Origin: a virus
Length of the DNA stretch: 26,714 bases
Strand: one strand, 5' to 3'
IMG/VR virus record: IMGVR_UViG_3300034283_003137
Location: 1 to 26,714 of that record
The translations under genes and the position numbers were made by a program. Under the pieces are notes generated by a model. It was given only the letters and a program-made list of their open reading frames with translations, searched no databases and had not been told where the DNA came from. Positions 3,145 through 10,966 of this stretch are shown here, piece by piece (positions within the stretch are counted from its first letter, which is position 1; each line of letters opens with the position of its first letter).

Positions 3145-3546
3145 ATGGCTCCTGCCTCCCTCGCCGATGTGCCCCGCTGGGTTCATTCCGACGTCATCAA
3201 GCACCGCCCTGTGGGCAGTTCCAACATACCCGGCGTCCAGGCCAATGACCGAGACCTGCTGCTGCTCGTGAACGACCGGCTGGACTTCGTCAATACCTGC
3301 GTCGAAGAGTTCGGGTGGACTTACGAGTGCGGCAAAGACCCCGGGGACAAATACCCAGCCGCCGACGGGTCCACGTTCTCTTCGCTGCGGAAAGGGCAGG
3401 TGAACCTGATCGTCACCAGCCTCCCGCATTTTTACCGGGGGTTCAGCATCGGCGCGGCTATCTGCGAGTTCTTTCGCGTCTCTCGCCGGCCGGTGCGGGT
3501 GTTCATTCACAAGGTGACGATCGCCTTGTGGAGCCCGGTCCTGTGA
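3145..3546 (+). CDS. Conserved phage protein of unknown function, possibly nucleotidyltransferase-like
   Basis: This encodes 133 aa from the ATG at 3145 (MAPASLADVPRWVHSD); the frame is open upstream but runs into the structured RNA block. The central and C-terminal part carries a pattern I associate with small phage proteins encoded near replication genes: a helix with LLLLVNDRLDFVNTCVEE, then FSSLRKGQVNLIVTS, FYRGFSIGAAICEFF and a basic RRPVRVFIHKV strand. The KGxVNLIVT strand followed by a helix resembles a reduced nucleotidyltransferase-type fold, but I see no catalytic aspartate pair, so that is only a guess. Its TGA overlaps the GTG start of the exonuclease gene (GTGA at 3543-3546), which suggests coupled translation. 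Confidence 0.7.
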   Translation: MAPASLADVPRWVHSDVIKHRPVGSSNIPGVQANDRDLLLLVNDRLDFVNTCVEEFGWTYECGKDPGDKYPAADGSTFSSLRKGQVNLIVTSLPHFYRGFSIGAAICEFFRVSRRPVRVFIHKVTIALWSPVL

Positions 3547-4445
3547 ATCTGACCATCGACTTTGAAACACGGAGCCGGGCAGATCTCAAAAAGACCGGCC
3601 CCTGGGTCTATGGGTCGCACTCGTCCACGCAGGTCCTATGCTTGTCGGTCAAGGTCGGCAAGGAGCCCTCGTGCCTGTGGCTGCCCAGCTTCACCTACGG
3701 GTGGCTGCCCATGGGCCACGGGCTGCCGATCATGACCGCCGACAGGCTGGTCGAGATCATCTCCGAAGCCGAGGAGGTCGAGGCCCATTCCGCCGAGTTC
3801 GAGCAGGCCATCTGGCACCACGTCATGGTGCGCCGGCACGCCTTCCCAGAGATCCCGCTCAACAAGTGGCGCTGCAGCGCGGCCCGTGCAGCCATGTGCT
3901 CGCTGCCCCGCAGCCTGGGCGAGGCGTGTTCGGTTCTGGGCCTCGCCACCCAGAAGGACATGGAGGGCAAGCGCATCATGATGAAGATGTGCAAGCCCCA
4001 GAAGAGCAAGAAGACCGTGATGCACGAGGGCCAGAAGGCCAGCGTCACCTCGGAGCACTGGCACGAAGACCCCGCTGACTTCGTGAAGCTCTGCCGCTAC
4101 TGCCTGCAGGACACCGAGGCCGAGCACGATCTGTCCCGGGCCTTGCCGCCCCTGCCGCCAAACGAGCTGGCCATCTGGCGGGTTGATCAGTTGATCAACC
4201 GTCGGGGCCTGCTTGTCGATGTGGACTCGGCCCAGGCCATGGTCCGAGCCATTGCGGACTACGAGGTCAAACTCCTAGCCGAGTTCCGCGGCATCACGCA
4301 GGGCAAGCTCTCCAGCCCGAAGAAGATCCAGGCTTTCCTGGAGTACCTGAAGACCGAGTTCGGAGTGGAGCTCGACGACCTGCGGAAAAACACCGTGGTT
4401 GATGCATTGAAGGACTTGGAAGACGAGGACGAAGAAGGCTCTTGA
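3543..4445 (+). CDS. Family A DNA polymerase, N-terminal half: 3'-5' proofreading exonuclease plus start of thumb
   Basis: This 300-aa protein starts at the GTG at 3543, with GGAG at 3530-3533. It begins MNLTIDFETRS, the ExoI motif (D6, E8). ExoII is AHSAEFEQAIW at 81-91, with Ser where family members often have Asn and E87 at the metal-ligand position. ExoIII is YCLQD (Y186, D190), so this is a DEDDy proofreading exonuclease. Residues about 205-290 continue into the polymerase module (NELAIWRVDQLINRRGLLVD, then LSSPKKIQAFLEYL), which matches the first part of the Pol I thumb. The protein then ends in an acidic DLEDEDEEGS. Phage relatives usually continue directly into LEIRQELSK-type sequence; here that continuation is a separate gene at 5176. 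The two products probably associate to give a proofreading polymerase. Confidence 0.88.
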   Translation: MNLTIDFETRSRADLKKTGPWVYGSHSSTQVLCLSVKVGKEPSCLWLPSFTYGWLPMGHGLPIMTADRLVEIISEAEEVEAHSAEFEQAIWHHVMVRRHAFPEIPLNKWRCSAARAAMCSLPRSLGEACSVLGLATQKDMEGKRIMMKMCKPQKSKKTVMHEGQKASVTSEHWHEDPADFVKLCRYCLQDTEAEHDLSRALPPLPPNELAIWRVDQLINRRGLLVDVDSAQAMVRAIADYEVKLLAEFRGITQGKLSSPKKIQAFLEYLKTEFGVELDDLRKNTVVDALKDLEDEDEEGS

Positions 4446-4468
4446 CACGTTCGCCACCAGCGTACAGT
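4442..4468 (+). promoter_or_regulatory. Candidate sigma-70-type promoter between the polymerase halves
   Basis: TTGACA (4442-4447) overlaps the stop codon of the exonuclease gene. TACAGT (4463-4468) follows after 15 bases, one or two shorter than ideal. It would start transcription about 40-45 bases before the ATG at 4519, in an otherwise GC-rich region. A perfect -35 hexamer just ahead of a small gene with its own terminator supports it; the short spacer and imperfect -10 weaken it. Confidence 0.4.
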
Positions 4469-4518
4469 CAGCCCCACAACCAGGGCATCCGCCCTACAAC
4501 CCCAAGGAGAACATCACC

Positions 4519-4734
4519 ATGTTCGGACGTCTCACTACCCCCAACCTCCCCTCTGCCGCCGACGAGGTTTCCCACTGGACCGAGGTCAAGCGCAATGCCG
4601 TGAAGTCCGGCGATACCGCCCTGGCCGAACGCGCCAAGGCCAACATCGCCGAGGCCCAGGGCCGCAAGGCCAAGCAGCTGGCCACCACCCGGGTCATCGA
4701 CCGGCGCGGCCTCCGCAAGACCGTCGCAGCCTGA
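4519..4734 (+). CDS. Small basic helical protein inserted between the polymerase halves (moron-like cargo)
   Basis: This encodes 71 aa from the ATG at 4519, with a strong AAGGAGA (4503-4509). The sequence MFGRLTTPNLPSAADEVSHW leads into a long charged helix (residues about 15-58, rich in Ala, Lys, Glu and Arg) and a basic tail (RVIDRRGLRKTVAA). The net charge is positive, so nucleic-acid binding is possible, but I recognise no family. It has its own candidate promoter upstream and an excellent terminator seven bases after its stop, so it looks like an independent expression unit placed inside the polymerase locus. That arrangement is how phage morons are defined. Confidence 0.7.
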   Translation: MFGRLTTPNLPSAADEVSHWTEVKRNAVKSGDTALAERAKANIAEAQGRKAKQLATTRVIDRRGLRKTVAA

Positions 4735-4740
4735 TCACCA

Positions 4741-4769
4741 GCCCGGCGGAAACCCCGCCGGGCCTTTTT
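4741..4769 (+). terminator. Strong rho-independent terminator inside the polymerase locus
   Basis: GCCCGGCGG (4741-4749) pairs perfectly with CCGCCGGGC (4755-4763) around AAACC, followed by CTTTTTGTT (T5 at 4765-4769). Nine G-C-rich pairs plus a T tract make this a textbook terminator. It follows the 71-aa gene and precedes the polymerase half, so transcription from upstream must read through it or restart downstream. Confidence 0.88.
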
Positions 4770-4786
4770 GTTGAGGAGATACACCG

Positions 4787-4960
4787 ATGACTGTCAATGA
4801 ACTGATCGACCATCTGCAGGTTATCCAGTCTTCCGGCCATGGCGCGAAGGTCGTCGCCATCCCCGACATTCAGGGCGCGACGTACCAGGACGCCCAGGAC
4901 GTGAAGATCTGCGCCCGTGGCCTTGGGAGCCGTCGAGAGGAGGTGGTCCTTGTCTACTGA
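4787..4960 (+). CDS. Small phage protein of the MTVxELI type (57 aa), unknown function
   Basis: The ATG at 4787 follows GAGGAG (4773-4778), and the frame closes with TGA at 4958-4960. The product begins MTVNELIDHLQVIQSSGHGA and ends REEVVLVY. The layout, an N-terminal helix MTVxELIxxL, a beta hairpin with KVVAIPDIQG and a final beta strand, is that of a common family of tiny phage proteins that lie among early genes and have no assigned role. It is the second of three small genes between the polymerase halves, just after the terminator. Its last 11 bases overlap the next gene. Confidence 0.65.
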   Translation: MTVNELIDHLQVIQSSGHGAKVVAIPDIQGATYQDAQDVKICARGLGSRREEVVLVY

Positions 4961-5186
4961 ACTCCCGCCCCTGGTCGAACTCCGCAAGCCCGGGCGGCCC
5001 TTTGCTCCGTTCATGATTGTCGAGATCCGCATGGCCACACCTCTCGGTGACGTAGCCGGCAACCAGATCGTGCGCGACTGGGGCCACGAGCCAGCCACGG
5101 AACTGGACATCCGCATCGCCGTTGACCGCCTGATCCGCACCATGCGCCGCTTCGTCTGGAAGCAGGGTCTCCAGTATGTCATCTGA
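4950..5186 (+). CDS. Small hypothetical protein overlapping the polymerase gene start (78 aa)
   Basis: I chose the TTG at 4950 because a good GAGGAGG (4936-4942) lies seven bases upstream; a GTG at 4917 in the same frame would extend it by 11 residues but lies deep in the preceding gene. The product begins MSTELPPLVELRKPGRPFAP and contains a beta segment (FMIVEIRMATPLGDVAGNQIV) and a basic helix (IAVDRLIRTMRRFVWKQG). No domain is recognised. It overlaps the upstream gene by 11 bases and the polymerase gene by 11 bases (5176-5186), so translation of the polymerase half is probably coupled to it. Confidence 0.6.
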   Translation: MSTELPPLVELRKPGRPFAPFMIVEIRMATPLGDVAGNQIVRDWGHEPATELDIRIAVDRLIRTMRRFVWKQGLQYVI

Positions 5187-6459
5187 CTGGCAAGAATCAG
5201 CCCCCGAGATGGGTATAGGCACCTACGGGGATATGCAGACGCCGCCAAAGGCGGATAAGCCGGCCCCCCGAAAGAGCGATCCCCAGGTAAAGCGCCTCCT
5301 CGAGATCCGCCAGGAACTCTCGAAGGCGTCTACGGCCAAGTACAAGGCCCTGATCAACGGGCTCGATGGGGTGGACCACATCCGGTCATTGCTCATGTAC
5401 CATGGTGCGGGCACCGGGCGCTGGACTGCGAAGCGGTTCCAGCCTCAGAACCTCCCCAGCCGCGGGCTTGCCGTCGATGCGGAGGGCGTCGATGGCGCCA
5501 TTGCCGCAGCCAAGGTGGGCCTGCTCGAGGAGCTCTACAGCGACGTCATGGGTGTGGCCTCTGCGTGCATCAGAGGCATGCTCATCGCCTCGCCTGGGCA
5601 CCGCTTCATCTCTGCGGACTTCTCGGCCATTGAGGGCCGGGTGCTGGCGTGGATGGCCGGCGAAGAGCATGTCCTCCAGGCCTACGTCGAAGGCAAGCGC
5701 CTCTACTGCGTGGCCGCCGCTGGCATCTACAAGGTGCCCTACGAAGAGATCAACGAGGGCCGGAAGCACGACCCGAAGTACAAGAAGATGGACTCCATCG
5801 GCAAGGTCATCGAGCTGGCCTGCGGATACCAGGGCAGTGTCGGCGCTTTCAAGGCCATGGCCGAGGGCTATGGCGTCGAGGTGCCGGAGGACGAGGCGAA
5901 GGAAGCCATCTACGCATGGCGCGAATCCAGGCCCCTCACGGTGGCTCTGTGGCGAGGCATGGAGCAGGCGGCCATCGAGGCCGTGATGAGCCCCGGCACC
6001 GTCACGACCTACCAGATGGTCAAGTTCAAAGTCATCGGCAAGTACCTGCTGATGAAGCTGCCCAGCGGGCGGTTCCTCTACTACTTCAACCCCAACGTCG
6101 AAGAGAAAGAGATGCCCTGGAAGGACGACCAGGGCAACCCCTGCTACAAGGATTGCGTGTCATACTGGGCCGTCGATTCCTACACCAAGAAGTGGTCGAA
6201 GTGCTGGGGGTATGGAGGGCTGTGGACGGAGAACGCAGTCCAGGCTGTGGCCCGGGACCTGATGGCCTCGGCCATGCTCCGCGTCGAAGCAGCCGGATAC
6301 CCCGTGGTATTGACAGTCCATGACGAACTCGTAAGCGAAGCCCCTGTAGACCACGGTTCCGTGGAAGACTACGTCAAAATCATGTGCGACAGTCCGGCTT
6401 GGGCGGCCGGGTGCCCTGTCGCCGCAGAGGGCTGGTCCGGTCCTCGTTACAGGAAGTAG
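5176..6459 (+). CDS. Family A DNA polymerase, C-terminal half: rest of thumb, palm and fingers
   Basis: This encodes 427 aa from the ATG at 5176. Residues 1-35 (Pro/Lys-rich) look like an added linker; similarity to PolA begins at VKRLLEIRQELSKASTAKYK (38-57), the second part of the thumb. TGRW (80-83) and QNLP follow. Motif A is DFSAIEGR (D148, E153), the O helix is GKVIELACGYQG (K210, Y218), QAVARD is at 356-361, and motif C is VHDE (H382, D383, E384). The catalytic aspartates D148 and D383 are both present, so polymerase activity is expected. One oddity: the arginine four residues before the O-helix lysine, part of RxxxK in Pol I and T7 polymerase, is Asp206 here. There is no exonuclease domain; it is encoded separately at 3543-4445. 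An HNH endonuclease gene follows two bases later. Confidence 0.92.
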   Translation: MSSDWQESAPEMGIGTYGDMQTPPKADKPAPRKSDPQVKRLLEIRQELSKASTAKYKALINGLDGVDHIRSLLMYHGAGTGRWTAKRFQPQNLPSRGLAVDAEGVDGAIAAAKVGLLEELYSDVMGVASACIRGMLIASPGHRFISADFSAIEGRVLAWMAGEEHVLQAYVEGKRLYCVAAAGIYKVPYEEINEGRKHDPKYKKMDSIGKVIELACGYQGSVGAFKAMAEGYGVEVPEDEAKEAIYAWRESRPLTVALWRGMEQAAIEAVMSPGTVTTYQMVKFKVIGKYLLMKLPSGRFLYYFNPNVEEKEMPWKDDQGNPCYKDCVSYWAVDSYTKKWSKCWGYGGLWTENAVQAVARDLMASAMLRVEAAGYPVVLTVHDELVSEAPVDHGSVEDYVKIMCDSPAWAAGCPVAAEGWSGPRYRK

Positions 6460-6461
6460 TT

Positions 6462-7004
6462 ATGTCCAAGGTCTGGAAACCAATACCTGGGTGGGCCGGC
6501 TTTTACGAGGTGAGCGACGGCGGCGACGTTCGCTCGGTCGATCGTAACTTTGAGGTGCTGGCGCCCGGCCGCGCCCGGCATTTGAGATACCTGCGAGGAC
6601 GGCTTCTGGCCGCTACGGAATCACCCAACGGGTACTCACTCGTGGTGCTGAGTCGGCCTCGCTGCGCGGCAGTGCATAGGTATATCCACCGCCTCGTCCT
6701 GCTCGCTTTCCAAGGCCCTTGCCCCGAGGGTATGGAGGTGTGCCACAACAACGGAATACGGGCAGACAATCGGCTTGAAAACCTCAGGTATGACACGAGA
6801 GCGGCCAATGCTCGGGACCGGGTGGCCCACGGCACAGCGGCCTCGCTCAAGGGCGAGAACAACCCTTCTTCGAAATTGACCGACGCAGATGTGCGGATGA
6901 TCCGCACGTCTAAAGAGTCCGCACGATCCATAGGCCGGCGCCTTGGAGTCTCACACAACATCGTGGCTGCCGCTCGCCGGGGCACAGCCTGGGCCCACAT
7001 CTAG
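6462..7004 (+). CDS. NUMOD4-HNH homing-type endonuclease with C-terminal HTH
   Basis: This 180-aa protein starts at the ATG at 6462, two bases after the polymerase stop, with AGGAAG upstream. Residues about 5-48 match NUMOD4 (WKPIPGWAGFYEVSDGGDVRSV). The HNH core is about 74-112: HRLVLLAFQG with H76, then VCHNNGIRADNRLENLRY with H95, N103 and N107. Residues about 138-176 (LTDADVRMIRTS..SIGRRLGVSHNIV) are a helix-turn-helix that probably helps target recognition. Free-standing enzymes of this class cut at or near their insertion site in gene-empty relatives and are copied in by repair. Placement against a split DNA polymerase fits a homing element that targets the polymerase gene. The extra upstream frame (from 6384) only overlaps the polymerase coding sequence and was not used. 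Confidence 0.9.
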   Translation: MSKVWKPIPGWAGFYEVSDGGDVRSVDRNFEVLAPGRARHLRYLRGRLLAATESPNGYSLVVLSRPRCAAVHRYIHRLVLLAFQGPCPEGMEVCHNNGIRADNRLENLRYDTRAANARDRVAHGTAASLKGENNPSSKLTDADVRMIRTSKESARSIGRRLGVSHNIVAAARRGTAWAHI

Positions 7005-7766: not shown

Positions 7767-8321
7767 ATGATCATCGCCCTCTACTCCCCCAAACCCCAGT
7801 CTGGCAAGACGACCGTCGCCCGCTACCTGCAGGAGTGCCACGGCTTCCGCCGGGTGCCCTTCGCCGGCACGCTGAAGGCCATGATGCGACCGATGCTCAT
7901 GGACATCGGCTACGACCTCGTCGAGATCGAGCGCCTCGAGAACGGCGACAAGACCCAGGTGATCCCCGGTACCGAGCGCACCCTGCGCCACCTGTACCAG
8001 ACCCTGGGGACCGAGTGGGGCCGCAACGCCGTGGATCCGAACCTGTGGGTCAACGTCTGGCAGCAGAAGGTCGCCCTGATGGAGCGCACCTTCCGCAACA
8101 TCGTCGTCGATGACATGCGATTCCCGAACGAGCTCGATGTCGTCCTGGCCCTGGGCGGAGAGGCCTGGGCGATCGATCGGACCTCGGCCCAGGCTGTGGA
8201 AGGCCACGCCAGCGAGGGGGCCCTGAACTCCTATCTGTTCCCGGTGATCCTCGAGAACAACGGGTCTCTCGAGGACCTCTACGCTGGCGTGGACGCAGCG
8301 ATTCTCGGCGCCGCGGCCTGA
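7767..8321 (+). CDS. Deoxynucleoside monophosphate kinase
   Basis: This encodes 184 aa from the ATG at 7767, with AGGAAGG (7752-7758). The N-terminal P-loop reads SPKPQSGKTT (residues 7-16); the first Walker A glycine is Ser, while GKT is kept. FAGTLKAMMRPML (32-44) and RHLYQTLGTEWGRNAVDPNLWV (74-95) follow the T4 gp1-like dNMP kinase pattern. VVDDMRFPNE (113-122) is the usual second conserved block. It would phosphorylate dNMPs to dNDPs to feed replication, together with the nucleotidase two genes upstream. It is the last plus-strand gene and is followed at once by the convergence terminator. Confidence 0.88.
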   Translation: MIIALYSPKPQSGKTTVARYLQECHGFRRVPFAGTLKAMMRPMLMDIGYDLVEIERLENGDKTQVIPGTERTLRHLYQTLGTEWGRNAVDPNLWVNVWQQKVALMERTFRNIVVDDMRFPNELDVVLALGGEAWAIDRTSAQAVEGHASEGALNSYLFPVILENNGSLEDLYAGVDAAILGAAA

Positions 8322-8336
8322 CAGCGCACGCCAATG

Positions 8337-8390
8337 AAAAACCCCAGGCCACTCGGCCCGGGGTTTTTTTTTTTTTTTTTTTTTTTTTTT
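8337..8390. terminator. Bidirectional terminator at the convergence of the two gene arms
   Basis: CCCC-A-GGCC (8342-8350) pairs with GGCC-C-GGGG (8355-8363) around ACTC, with one A/C mismatch. On the plus strand the hairpin is followed by a long T run (8364-8390). On the minus strand the same hairpin is followed by five T, from A8337-A8341. It therefore can end the early operon from the left and the virion operon from the right. Confidence 0.9.
8364..8390 (+). repeat. Homopolymer run of 27 T
   Basis: An unbroken T27 follows the terminator hairpin in DNA that is otherwise strongly GC-rich. Normal terminators have 5-9 T. It may be a real expanded tract or a sequencing or assembly artefact; the given length should not be trusted to the base. 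Confidence 0.9.
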
Positions 8391-8399
8391 GTTTGCGGA

Positions 8400-8669
8400 T
8401 CAGCTCGCCGCGTATCGGTAACTTGCCCAGGCTCCGCTGTGGTACACCCGGTAGATCAGGTTTCCTGCCGTGCCGTAGCCTGTACCGCCCACCGTGGCGG
8501 TCCCGTTCCGCACCAAAACGGTGAAGTGCGCCCCCTGGTGGGGGCTCGGGTCGGTGATGGTGGCAGTCGCCGTGACGACGTGGAAGGCCCCCTCGATCGC
8601 CGTTGTCGATGAAGAGACCTCAACTCCGTTGCCGCCTTGGAGGATTGGAGGAATGGTGGTCGTTGGCAT
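8400..8669 (-). CDS. Small beta-rich protein, probable tail-tip or fibre-associated protein
   Basis: This encodes 89 aa from the ATG ending at 8669, 35 bases after the tailspike stop, and is last in the virion operon. The sequence MPTTTIPPILQGGNGVEVSS opens a Thr/Gly/Val-rich, beta-strand pattern (FHVVTATATITDPS, FTVLVRNGTATVGG). It ends in an aromatic YRVYHSGAWASYRYAAS. Ends of this type occur at the C-termini of phage tail-fibre proteins, so this may be a separately made distal domain or an accessory to the tailspike. No catalytic motif is visible. The role is inferred mainly from position and composition. Confidence 0.65.
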   Translation of the reverse strand: MPTTTIPPILQGGNGVEVSSSTTAIEGAFHVVTATATITDPSPHQGAHFTVLVRNGTATVGGTGYGTAGNLIYRVYHSGAWASYRYAAS

Positions 8670-8704
8670 GGCTTACGTTTCCCAGAGTGGTATTGGGCTG
8701 GAGT

Positions 8705-10966
8705 TCAGTCCGCGAACGCGGTCACCGAGGGCGCGGACGAATACGTTACCGCAAAGGTCTCCCCAGGGCCGATGCGGAGGTGCCCAGAGGACATGCCGCT
8801 GATGTTGGTGCCGTTCTTAGCGATCCCTGAGACCGTCCCTCCATGGATGTGGACGGAAAGCCAGTAGGGGAGCACATTAGTGTAGGCCACTGTAGACGCA
8901 GGAAGCGTGAGGGCCACGGGCCCGACCGGCTGAAAGCCGATGTTGTTGGCCACGATGCGGTTTTTGCTGCCTGCGGCGTGCGCCACTGCGCTGAACCCGC
9001 TCGTGGTTCCGACAAGACGGTTGCCCGTGATGGAGTACTTGGTCACGTCGGATGCGACAGTCACCCCGTGGGTCGCGGTGTACGTCGGCAGCGCGATATC
9101 GACATCCCCGAGGGTGTTGCCGCTGATGGTCACGTCGTCAGCGCCGTTCAACCGGATGGCCGGAGTTCCGAGGGCGAGGCCGTTGCACGAAGTGATTTGG
9201 CACCCGCTGACCAAGACTTGAGTTACCCCAGCGCCCAGTTCGATGCCGCACAGCCCAGCCAGAAGCACTCGGGATTGCCCGAACTGGAGAAGCTGCACCG
9301 CGCCGCTACTCACGGCGACAGTCTCCACGGCGTGATTGAGGCTCGCGGTGAGCCAGCACCCGGTGACGTGGACGCGCAGCACCAGAGACCCGACTCCGTT
9401 CGCGGCCATGTAGACCGACTGATTGCGGGTGAAGTCGAAGATGTTCTGGTTAAACCAGATGTTCTGGAGAACCTTACCCCCCGCAGCAGAGATAACCGCT
9501 CCCTGGTAGAACCGTTGAAAGATAGAATTGCTGACCACCAGTGTATCCAGGTGGTCGTTCTGGACCGAGATTCCGCCCCCGCCGATCGCGCTGCTGGTGC
9601 CGGAGGACCCCGTGCCAGAGGCAATGCAGTCGGCATCGTTGATGTAGATGCCGGCTGCTCGGTGGATGTCGAAGACATAACCGCCGACGTTCGCCATGGC
9701 CGAGGAGAAGTTATCGCAGAATACCAAGTTGCAGCCGACGGTGGACCCCGTGAAAATGACCCCTCCCCCACCATTCTCGAGATGGATGTTGTTGATGAAC
9801 CCCCGGGCCAGTCCTTCGCAGGCGATAGCATAGTGCCCGTTGGACGGGGTGCCGACGACTTCGAACCCGATGTCCTCGATACCCGCGTTTGACGTCCCGA
9901 CAGCCCCGCTTCCGATAGTGACGAAAGTCCCATTCCCAGAACGGACGAGCGTCGATAGGCGAGGCCCCGCGCCGCGGACGACGGAGAAGTTGGAGGTCAC
10001 CGCGAAAGTCCCGGAGACGACGTACCGCCCTGCGGGGAAATAGAGCACCGCTCCAGTGGCCCGGCCATTGACCACAGAGGCCGCATTCTGGATAGATGCT
10101 GTGTCATCGGTGACCCCGTCCCCCTTGGCCCCGAAATCTTTGACGTTTACGACATCAGCGAAACGCTCGGACAGCCGACGAGGGGTGTCGGTTCCGGTGG
10201 CGACGATGTTCCCGTCAGGGACTCCGGTCGGCAGCGTCTTCGGGATACGAACCTCGACCTCGGCCACTCCGACAGGGATGGGCGACGTGAGGATGAGGTA
10301 CAGCGTCGAAACCCCGTAAGTCGCACGATGCTGAACCACCCCGTCGAAAGTGACCAGGATCGACTGGGCCGAGGCCGGCGCCTCGGAGAGCGTCAGCGCC
10401 GTCGTCACACCCCCGGTGAAACTGACGCCGGACAGGAAGCGGTCGACGACCCAGTTGCCAGCAATGGCGTCTGAGGCAGAGACGGTCTCGATGTTGGTAA
10501 ACGACTCCCCGTCGGTGCTGCCGAGGAGATACCCGGCGCGGGGAACGGGCAGCTCCAGGACTCCGCCGAACGAAGCCGGGACACGCAACGCCCGCCCGAC
10601 CCGCTCGTCCAGTTGCTGGGCGGCCATGGTCAGTTTGTCGTAGGCTGCCTCGTGCGCGTCAGGGAACCAGCCGCCGCTGTTGTCCAGGTCCAGTTCCTGC
10701 GTGATCTCGACCTCACGGAGGATAGTGACCTCGTAGCCCGATGGCAGCGTGGTAGCCGACGTGATGCTGCCGCCTGCGGTGCCCGCGGTGAACGACACCG
10801 AGTAGTCCGTCGTCAGGGTGAGTAGCACCTCCTGCGAAGTCACCGTGTCGAGCCGATAGACCTTGAGATCCTCGGCCGCAGTGATCGGAAAGGAGAACGG
10901 GAAGACCGTGGTGGCCCCGTTCGTGGCGAACGGGCCGGCGCGATTGCTGTCGGTAGGAACGGTCAT
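8705..10966 (-). CDS. Tailspike with phage-tail N-terminal domain and pectate-lyase-like beta-helix
   Basis: This 753-aa protein has an ATG whose first bases overlap the giant gene's TGA (ATGA). Residues 1-130 resemble the N-terminal attachment domain of T7-type tail fibres: VFPFSFPITAAEDLKVYRLD, a TTDYSVSF strand, GYEVTILREV, and a helix with AAYDKLTMAAQQLDERVGRAL. Around 270-300 the sequence VKDFGAKGDGVTDD is the signature that opens pectate_lyase_3 right-handed beta-helices. A long Gly/Asn/Val-rich solenoid follows to about residue 650, then a beta-rich C-terminal part. It should bind the tail by its N-terminus and recognise or cleave a surface polysaccharide with the helix. The order after the gp16-like protein matches T7 gene 17. 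The glycan and catalytic residues cannot be told from sequence. Confidence 0.9.
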   Translation of the reverse strand: MTVPTDSNRAGPFATNGATTVFPFSFPITAAEDLKVYRLDTVTSQEVLLTLTTDYSVSFTAGTAGGSITSATTLPSGYEVTILREVEITQELDLDNSGGWFPDAHEAAYDKLTMAAQQLDERVGRALRVPASFGGVLELPVPRAGYLLGSTDGESFTNIETVSASDAIAGNWVVDRFLSGVSFTGGVTTALTLSEAPASAQSILVTFDGVVQHRATYGVSTLYLILTSPIPVGVAEVEVRIPKTLPTGVPDGNIVATGTDTPRRLSERFADVVNVKDFGAKGDGVTDDTASIQNAASVVNGRATGAVLYFPAGRYVVSGTFAVTSNFSVVRGAGPRLSTLVRSGNGTFVTIGSGAVGTSNAGIEDIGFEVVGTPSNGHYAIACEGLARGFINNIHLENGGGGVIFTGSTVGCNLVFCDNFSSAMANVGGYVFDIHRAAGIYINDADCIASGTGSSGTSSAIGGGGISVQNDHLDTLVVSNSIFQRFYQGAVISAAGGKVLQNIWFNQNIFDFTRNQSVYMAANGVGSLVLRVHVTGCWLTASLNHAVETVAVSSGAVQLLQFGQSRVLLAGLCGIELGAGVTQVLVSGCQITSCNGLALGTPAIRLNGADDVTISGNTLGDVDIALPTYTATHGVTVASDVTKYSITGNRLVGTTSGFSAVAHAAGSKNRIVANNIGFQPVGPVALTLPASTVAYTNVLPYWLSVHIHGGTVSGIAKNGTNISGMSSGHLRIGPGETFAVTYSSAPSVTAFAD

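What the first reader, a model, noticed from the sequence alone, without database searches (positions are those of the whole stretch)
3543..6459. Family A DNA polymerase split within the thumb by about 730 bp carrying three small genes
The 300-aa exonuclease protein ends just after the first thumb segment (LSSPKKIQAFLEYL..VVDALK). The 427-aa protein resumes at the next conserved thumb segment (LLEIRQELSKASTAKYK). Phage relatives normally hold both on one chain. All exonuclease and polymerase catalytic acids are kept, so the halves are probably both functional and reassemble. The first half gained an acidic tail and the second a Pro/Lys-rich head, which could be docking elements. A proofreading polymerase broken at the thumb with cargo genes between is uncommon.
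Basis: partly seen in the sequence, partly recalled or inferred. Interest (0 to 1): 0.75.

Follow-up and report, generated by a model that had tools for sequence, protein, structure and literature searches.

The report
Phage DNA polymerase split in thumb
A bacterial virus makes its DNA-copying enzyme as two separate proteins, cut within the part that grips DNA and with small unrelated genes in the gap; two other viruses have the same cut with different genes in it, so it looks like a working, inherited two-piece enzyme and not an error.

Summary
A phage family A DNA polymerase is encoded as an exonuclease plus thumb-base chain (3543-4445) and a thumb/palm/fingers chain (5176-6459). They lie 730 bp apart with three small ORFs between. 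Nothing conserved is lost: the break sits in a naturally variable loop between thumb helices H2 and I.

In a survey of 297 distinct relatives nearly all are single chains, but two other IMG/VR contigs have the same break. L171 shares the order of neighbouring genes (59% identity in the second chain) and has other cargo between the halves: an HNH endonuclease, an RNA ligase and two small ORFs. L262 (43.8 kb record) has one 63-aa ORF between and no second polymerase. Substitution ratios (dN/dS about 0.24 and 0.26 between the window and L171) indicate constraint on both chains. Intron, intein and assembly error are disfavoured.

The proposed docking tails are not supported: both relatives lack them. 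The insert holds a strong transcription terminator, and an HNH endonuclease gene abuts the second chain.

Split phage family A polymerases were already reported (MEP401), broken elsewhere. This is a new, probably recurrent breakpoint of a known kind. Assembly of the chains is inferred, not shown.

The parts
3543..4445 (+). First polymerase chain: 3'-5' exonuclease domain plus thumb base (to the end of helix H2); GTG start overlaps the stop of the preceding ORF
   Evidence: PHROG_17 profile 673-926; AlphaFold2 pLDDT 94.7, top PDB fold matches phage G20c Pol I, T7 DNA polymerase, E. coli Pol I; exonuclease acids kept
4417..4442 (+). Acidic C-terminal tail of the first chain (..EDEDEEGS); unconserved
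   Evidence: absent from L171 and L262
4519..4734 (+). Small ORF s1 (71 aa), unknown; SD-like AAGGAG upstream
   Evidence: coding-like GC by codon position; no homologue in Pfam, PHROGs or the 377 loci, and only an insignificant match (E 0.9) in phage records
4741..4772 (+). Intrinsic terminator-like hairpin (9 G-C pairs, then CTTTTTG) between the two polymerase chains
   Evidence: z -4.43, 0 of 200 shuffles as stable
4787..4960 (+). Small ORF s2 (57 aa), unknown; SD-like GAGGAGA upstream
4950..5186 (+). Small ORF s3 (78 aa, TTG start, SD-like GAGGAGGTGG), unknown; overlaps s2 and the start of the second chain
   Evidence: Pfam and PHROGs scans, used the longer GTG 4917 form
5176..6459 (+). 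Second polymerase chain: thumb helix I, palm, fingers
   Evidence: PHROG_17 903-1232, Pfam DNA_pol_A; AlphaFold2 pLDDT 86.3, first helix at residue 36; PDB fold matches to Pol I enzymes, E 2e-14
5176..5274 (+). Extra Pro/Lys-rich head of the second chain (33 aa), predicted disordered over residues 1-25; unconserved
   Evidence: absent from L171 and L262
5764..5799 (+). Insertion in motif B (..GRKHDPKYKKMDSIGK..), shared only with L171 among relatives compared
6462..7004 (+). NUMOD4 + HNH_3 endonuclease (180 aa), starting 2 nt after the second chain; candidate source of the break

Best explanation
The polymerase gene of an ancestor of this phage was broken by insertion of foreign genes at a loop of the thumb that tolerates insertions (between helices H2 and I). 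The phage now makes its replicative proofreading polymerase as two proteins: exonuclease plus helices H, H1, H2, and helix I plus palm plus fingers. They most likely refold into one enzyme without a covalent link, through the exonuclease-palm contact and by re-pairing of the thumb helices. The insertion was probably started by a free-standing HNH endonuclease of the kind still found between the halves in L171 and just behind the second chain here; the cargo was then exchanged, so each split phage holds different genes in the gap. Shown here: the split, its exact place, its presence in two other contigs with other cargo, and constraint on both chains. Inferred: that the chains bind each other and polymerise and proofread together; that an HNH gene made the break; that the terminator in the gap lowers or separates expression of the second chain.
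For: Break with no loss of conserved core. Same break in L171, with stacked start/stop overlaps from the first chain through four cargo genes to the second, and in L262, with one 63-aa ORF between and a strong ribosome site before the second chain. L262 lies in a 43.8 kb record with a terminase match and no other family A match and no family B or C match. L171 and the window share gene order DUF2800-SSB-first chain-second chain-dNMP kinase and form a clade with support 100/99. dN/dS is about 0.24 (first chain) and 0.26 (second chain) between them, against 0.51 for dNMP kinase. Each chain models confidently on its own and matches family A polymerase folds. Precedent: split gp43A/gp43B of phage 25 co-purify and are active, and split NrdA of phage Aeh1 is fully active (PMC2988022).
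Against: No direct test of binding or activity. The window differs at two otherwise nearly invariant places (Exo II N to S, interrupted motif B), though L171 shares the second. In the window the HNH gene is behind the second chain, not in the gap. HNH genes of this kind lie within 700 bp of the polymerase in 14 of 297 relatives, so adjacency is only suggestive. dS is near saturation, so the ratios are rough.
Confidence: 0.8

Rival explanations
1. The halves act separately: the first chain is a free nuclease, the second a polymerase without proofreading, and they do not form one enzyme.
For: L028 and L078 carry a palm-fingers chain with no exonuclease or thumb found in the record; the window's exonuclease has N83S.
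Against: Both chains end inside the thumb, so neither is a complete domain set; the thumb base stays with the exonuclease in all three split cases, and both chains are kept under constraint. L028 and L078 are fragments (5.3 and 29.8 kb).
Confidence: 0.1
2. The polymerase is decaying and another polymerase (host or elsewhere in the genome) does the work.
For: Two unusual active-site positions; the window record is incomplete.
Against: Full open frames, dN/dS about 0.25 in both chains, the motif-B change shared with L171, and no second polymerase in the 43.8 kb L262 record.
Confidence: 0.06
3. The gap is a self-splicing intron and a single chain is made after splicing.
For: Introns interrupt DNA polymerase genes in other phages, and the MEP401 authors raised the idea for their split (PMC10580990).
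Against: No group I or II intron match at E up to 1 over the window, and none among nine weak chance matches at E up to 10 in the gap. In L262 the gap is about 150 nt and filled by one overlapping ORF; in L171 all six genes are stacked by overlapping start and stop codons.
Confidence: 0.02
4. A split intein joins the halves after translation.
For: A relative, L252, has just that at another place of the same gene.
Against: The first chain has only about 8-10 residues after conserved sequence, and the second chain has no His-Asn/Cys-Ser junction in its head; L171 and L262 have no head at all.
Confidence: 0.01
5. Assembly or sequencing artefact.
For: Single metagenomic contig with no near-identical copy found.
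Against: The same break in two other contigs of different length and sequence; clean start, stop and ribosome sites; codon-position GC typical of genes on both sides and in the gap.
Confidence: 0.01

Closest known systems
Split family A DNA polymerase of Methylophilales phages MEP401/MEP402 and most group I relatives (PMC10580990)
   Same: Phage family A polymerase in two chains, exonuclease on the first, with a small unknown ORF between
   Different: Their break lies after the thumb, right before motif A ('..TLFLSRYGE | MILNADAKALEW..'); here it is inside the thumb between helices H2 and I. Different polymerase lineage and cargo.
gp43A/gp43B of Aeromonas phages 25 and 44RR (family B), and NrdA split by mobE in phage Aeh1 (reviewed in PMC2988022)
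   Same: Replication gene broken into two open frames with a homing endonuclease or other insert; the split products are shown active, and 43A/43B co-purify
   Different: Family B polymerase or ribonucleotide reductase. In the window the HNH gene lies behind the second chain; in L171 it lies between.
Split PolB with split intein and HNH gene in jumbo phage MIJ3 (PMC6892783); here also L252
   Same: Polymerase gene fractured with an endonuclease between the parts
   Different: Those halves carry intein parts for trans-splicing; the window's do not.
DpoZ of vibriophage phiVC8 (PMC8599892)
   Same: Phage PolA with an insertion interrupting motif B; there the dNTP-binding Arg stays in place
   Different: Single chain, and 2-aminoadenine-specific. 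Whether the window's Arg is kept is not shown.

Membership tests
Family A DNA polymerase (PHROG_17, Pfam DNA_pol_A) | Sequence and fold match over exonuclease, thumb, palm and fingers | tested here: met
   the two chains cover adjoining profile stretches
Family A DNA polymerase (PHROG_17, Pfam DNA_pol_A) | Catalytic acids of motifs A and C and of the exonuclease | tested here: met
   D148, H382-D383-E384, D6, E8, E87, D190
Family A DNA polymerase (PHROG_17, Pfam DNA_pol_A) | Motif B Arg and Lys on helix O | tested here: inconclusive
   Lys210 kept; D206 where 83 of 87 have Arg, with a nine-residue insertion; another alignment places an Arg before the insertion
MEP401-type split family A polymerase | Break between thumb and motif A | tested here: not met
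   the window's break is in the thumb. Relative L341 does have a thumb|palm break
Gene split by a free-standing homing endonuclease (Aeh1 nrdA / mobE type) | Endonuclease gene lying between the two parts | tested here: not met
   In the window the HNH gene follows the second chain (6462-7004); the feature is met in L171
Gene split by a free-standing homing endonuclease (Aeh1 nrdA / mobE type) | Split products reassemble into an active enzyme | not testable with these tools
   no wet test and no two-chain structure prediction available
Group I or II intron | Conserved catalytic core in the gap | tested here: not met
Split intein | N- and C-intein parts at the junction | tested here: not met
   too little sequence and no junction residues; contrast L252
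Moron-type cassette | Own promoter and terminator around an added gene | tested here: inconclusive
   strong terminator after s1; no promoter passes the scan; base composition of s1 is not clearly foreign

The most novel reading that the evidence does not exclude
The loop between thumb helices H2 and I is a recurrent, tolerated fission site of phage family A polymerases, where cargo genes settle without cost, and the terminator placed between the halves lets the phage set the ratio of proofreading to polymerising chain.
Probability: 0.12. Interest if true: 0.7.

Novelty: new variant of a known kind. Interest (0 to 1): 0.52.

Why it matters
If the two chains assemble, a proofreading replicative polymerase tolerates a permanent break in the subdomain that grips the DNA. 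That gives natural split pairs, with and without extensions, to test how thumb movement, processivity and primer transfer to the exonuclease work, and ready-made parts for split-polymerase tools. The same break with three different cargoes also shows how phage genes split and then serve as docking points for mobile genes.

Tried and rejected
Single-protein scans of IMG/VR with the window's own second chain and a structural protein found no near relative. The first survey of about 87 relatives showed no other thumb split, and I took the break for unique until a scan with a first-chain alignment brought in L171. Alignments of the half chains with full-length relatives misplaced the tails, so the structure predictions used trimmed rows. 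D206 first looked like the loss of an essential Arg and a sign of decay; the shared insertion in L171 and the alternative alignment argue against that. A first tree used L262's second chain in a wrong frame and gave a false long branch; it was redone. L154 (Cohnella prophage) looked like a fourth case, but it is a one-base frame change in the same loop with no usable start before helix I, so I treat it as a frameshift. L127 is a truncated remnant. Intron, intein and artefact were considered and rejected as stated. Homology searches for the three small ORFs gave nothing usable. A complex of the two chains could not be predicted with the tools at hand.
Full report
What is there. The window is an IMG/VR virus record of 26,714 bases, part of a podovirus-like phage with a replication block on the + strand (DUF2800/exonuclease, Enc34-type single-strand binding protein, polymerase, 5'-nucleotidase-like protein, dNMP kinase) and tail/ejection genes on the - strand. 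No terminase was found, so the record is incomplete. The polymerase is in two open frames, 3543-4445 and 5176-6459. They match adjoining parts of the same phage polymerase family. Against intact relatives nothing conserved is missing at the junction.

Where the break lies. The first chain ends after the equivalent of Taq '..STSAAVLEAL' and the second begins before '..REAHPIVEKILQYRELTK' (alignments). By established knowledge of family A structures this is the loop between thumb helices H2 and I. The loop varies in length in single-chain relatives and is long and acidic in some (L012, L224, L250). AlphaFold2 gives confident models of each chain alone: mean pLDDT 94.7 for the first, 86.3 for the second with residues 1-25 disordered. 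Both match family A polymerase folds in the PDB.

The gap. It holds s1 (4519-4734), a strong terminator-like hairpin (4741-4772; z -4.43; the best stem of 13 hits in 10 kb), s2 (4787-4960) and s3 (4950-5186). s3 overlaps the second chain's start by 11 nt, so that chain may be translated by coupling. All three ORFs have the codon-position GC pattern of genes. None has a usable homologue in Pfam, PHROGs, the phage records or the loci fetched; the one phage match was insignificant. Directly behind the second chain is a NUMOD4-HNH_3 endonuclease gene, 6462-7004.

Relatives. I surveyed 376 polymerase loci, 297 distinct polymerase sequences. The great majority are single chains. Two clean cases have the window's break. 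L171 (IMGVR_UViG_3300049856_000235): first chain 6001-6942, then a 75-aa ORF, an HNH endonuclease, an RNA ligase and a 73-aa ORF, then the second chain 8362-9555, all stacked by overlapping start and stop codons. It shares the window's gene order, 49% and 59% identity in the two chains, the motif-B insertion, and a clade with support 100/99. L262 (IMGVR_UViG_3300024520_004058): first chain to 7885, a 63-aa ORF 7851-8042, and the second chain from the ATG at 8035 with a strong ribosome site. It lies in a 43.8 kb record with a terminase match and no other polymerase found. L262 does not group with the other two in the tree, but a single origin is not rejected (AU p 0.297).

A second fission point exists in the same family, between thumb and palm. 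L341 has both halves around a small ORF, and L028 and L078 show only the palm-fingers chain. The published MEP401 split is also there, immediately before motif A. Other relatives carry inteins, and L252 a split intein with a GIY-YIG endonuclease between the parts. This polymerase gene is thus a repeated target of insertions.

Function. Between the window and L171 dN/dS is about 0.24 for the first chain and 0.26 for the second, against 0.51 for the neighbouring dNMP kinase (dS is near saturation, so these are rough). Since the break is shared by both, this constraint acted at least largely on two separate chains. In the 43.8 kb L262 record no other polymerase was found. A working two-chain enzyme is therefore the best reading. 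It is supported by analogy with split gp43A/43B, which co-purify and are active, and split NrdA, which is active (PMC2988022). Direct binding and activity remain untested.

The acidic tail and Pro/Lys head are absent from L171 and L262, so they are not required docking elements. The catalytic acids are kept, but the exonuclease II Asn is Ser83 and motif B is interrupted; the latter is shared with L171 and recalls the motif-B insertion of DpoZ, in which the Arg stays in place (PMC8599892). The break is rare but of a known kind.

Origin. An HNH gene lies in the gap in L171, abuts the second chain in the window, and follows the palm-fingers chain in L078. Genes of this kind lie within 700 bp of the polymerase in only 14 of 297 relatives. 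That fits an endonuclease-started break, as in T4-like phages, but the events are few and the window was picked for its split; I hold this part at about 0.4.

Verdict. Observation confirmed; interpretation partly supported; new variant of a known kind, strengthened by two further natural examples.

Noticed in passing
L252:4633-7972: Same polymerase family broken after 'TGRW' by a split intein with a GIY-YIG endonuclease ORF (6033-6932) between the intein parts: a fractured gene of another type.
   Followed up: partly
L341:4140-6283; L028:230-1276; L078:5974-6924: A second fission point between thumb and palm. L341 has both halves around a small ORF; L028 and L078 show only a palm-fingers chain of about 310-350 aa, matching the short family PHROG_10285.
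   Followed up: partly
window:5764-5799; L171:8362-9555: Motif-B insertion shared by the window and L171, reminiscent of insertion 2 of the 2-aminoadenine polymerase DpoZ; effect on dNTP choice unknown.
   Followed up: partly
L005:2610-5558, L253, L267: Inteins inside the polymerase gene of Caulobacter phage GB2A and two IMG/VR contigs, at different places.
   Followed up: no
L154:5186-7167: Cohnella cholangitidis prophage: reading frame changes by one base in the very same thumb loop; frameshift, programmed shift or sequencing error not decided.
   Followed up: partly
window:10963-19056: A single 2697-aa protein on the - strand, distantly related to large proteins of Microcystis phage Mel-JY33 and Bordetella phage BPP-1; probably a virion/ejection protein.
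   Followed up: no
window:8364-8390: A run of about 27 T between the two convergent gene blocks (read as nine Phe in a mechanical ORF); possibly a terminator region or an assembly homopolymer.
   Followed up: no
L021, L033, L043, L091: Exonuclease domain divided between two overlapping frames; frameshift or true split not decided.
   Followed up: no
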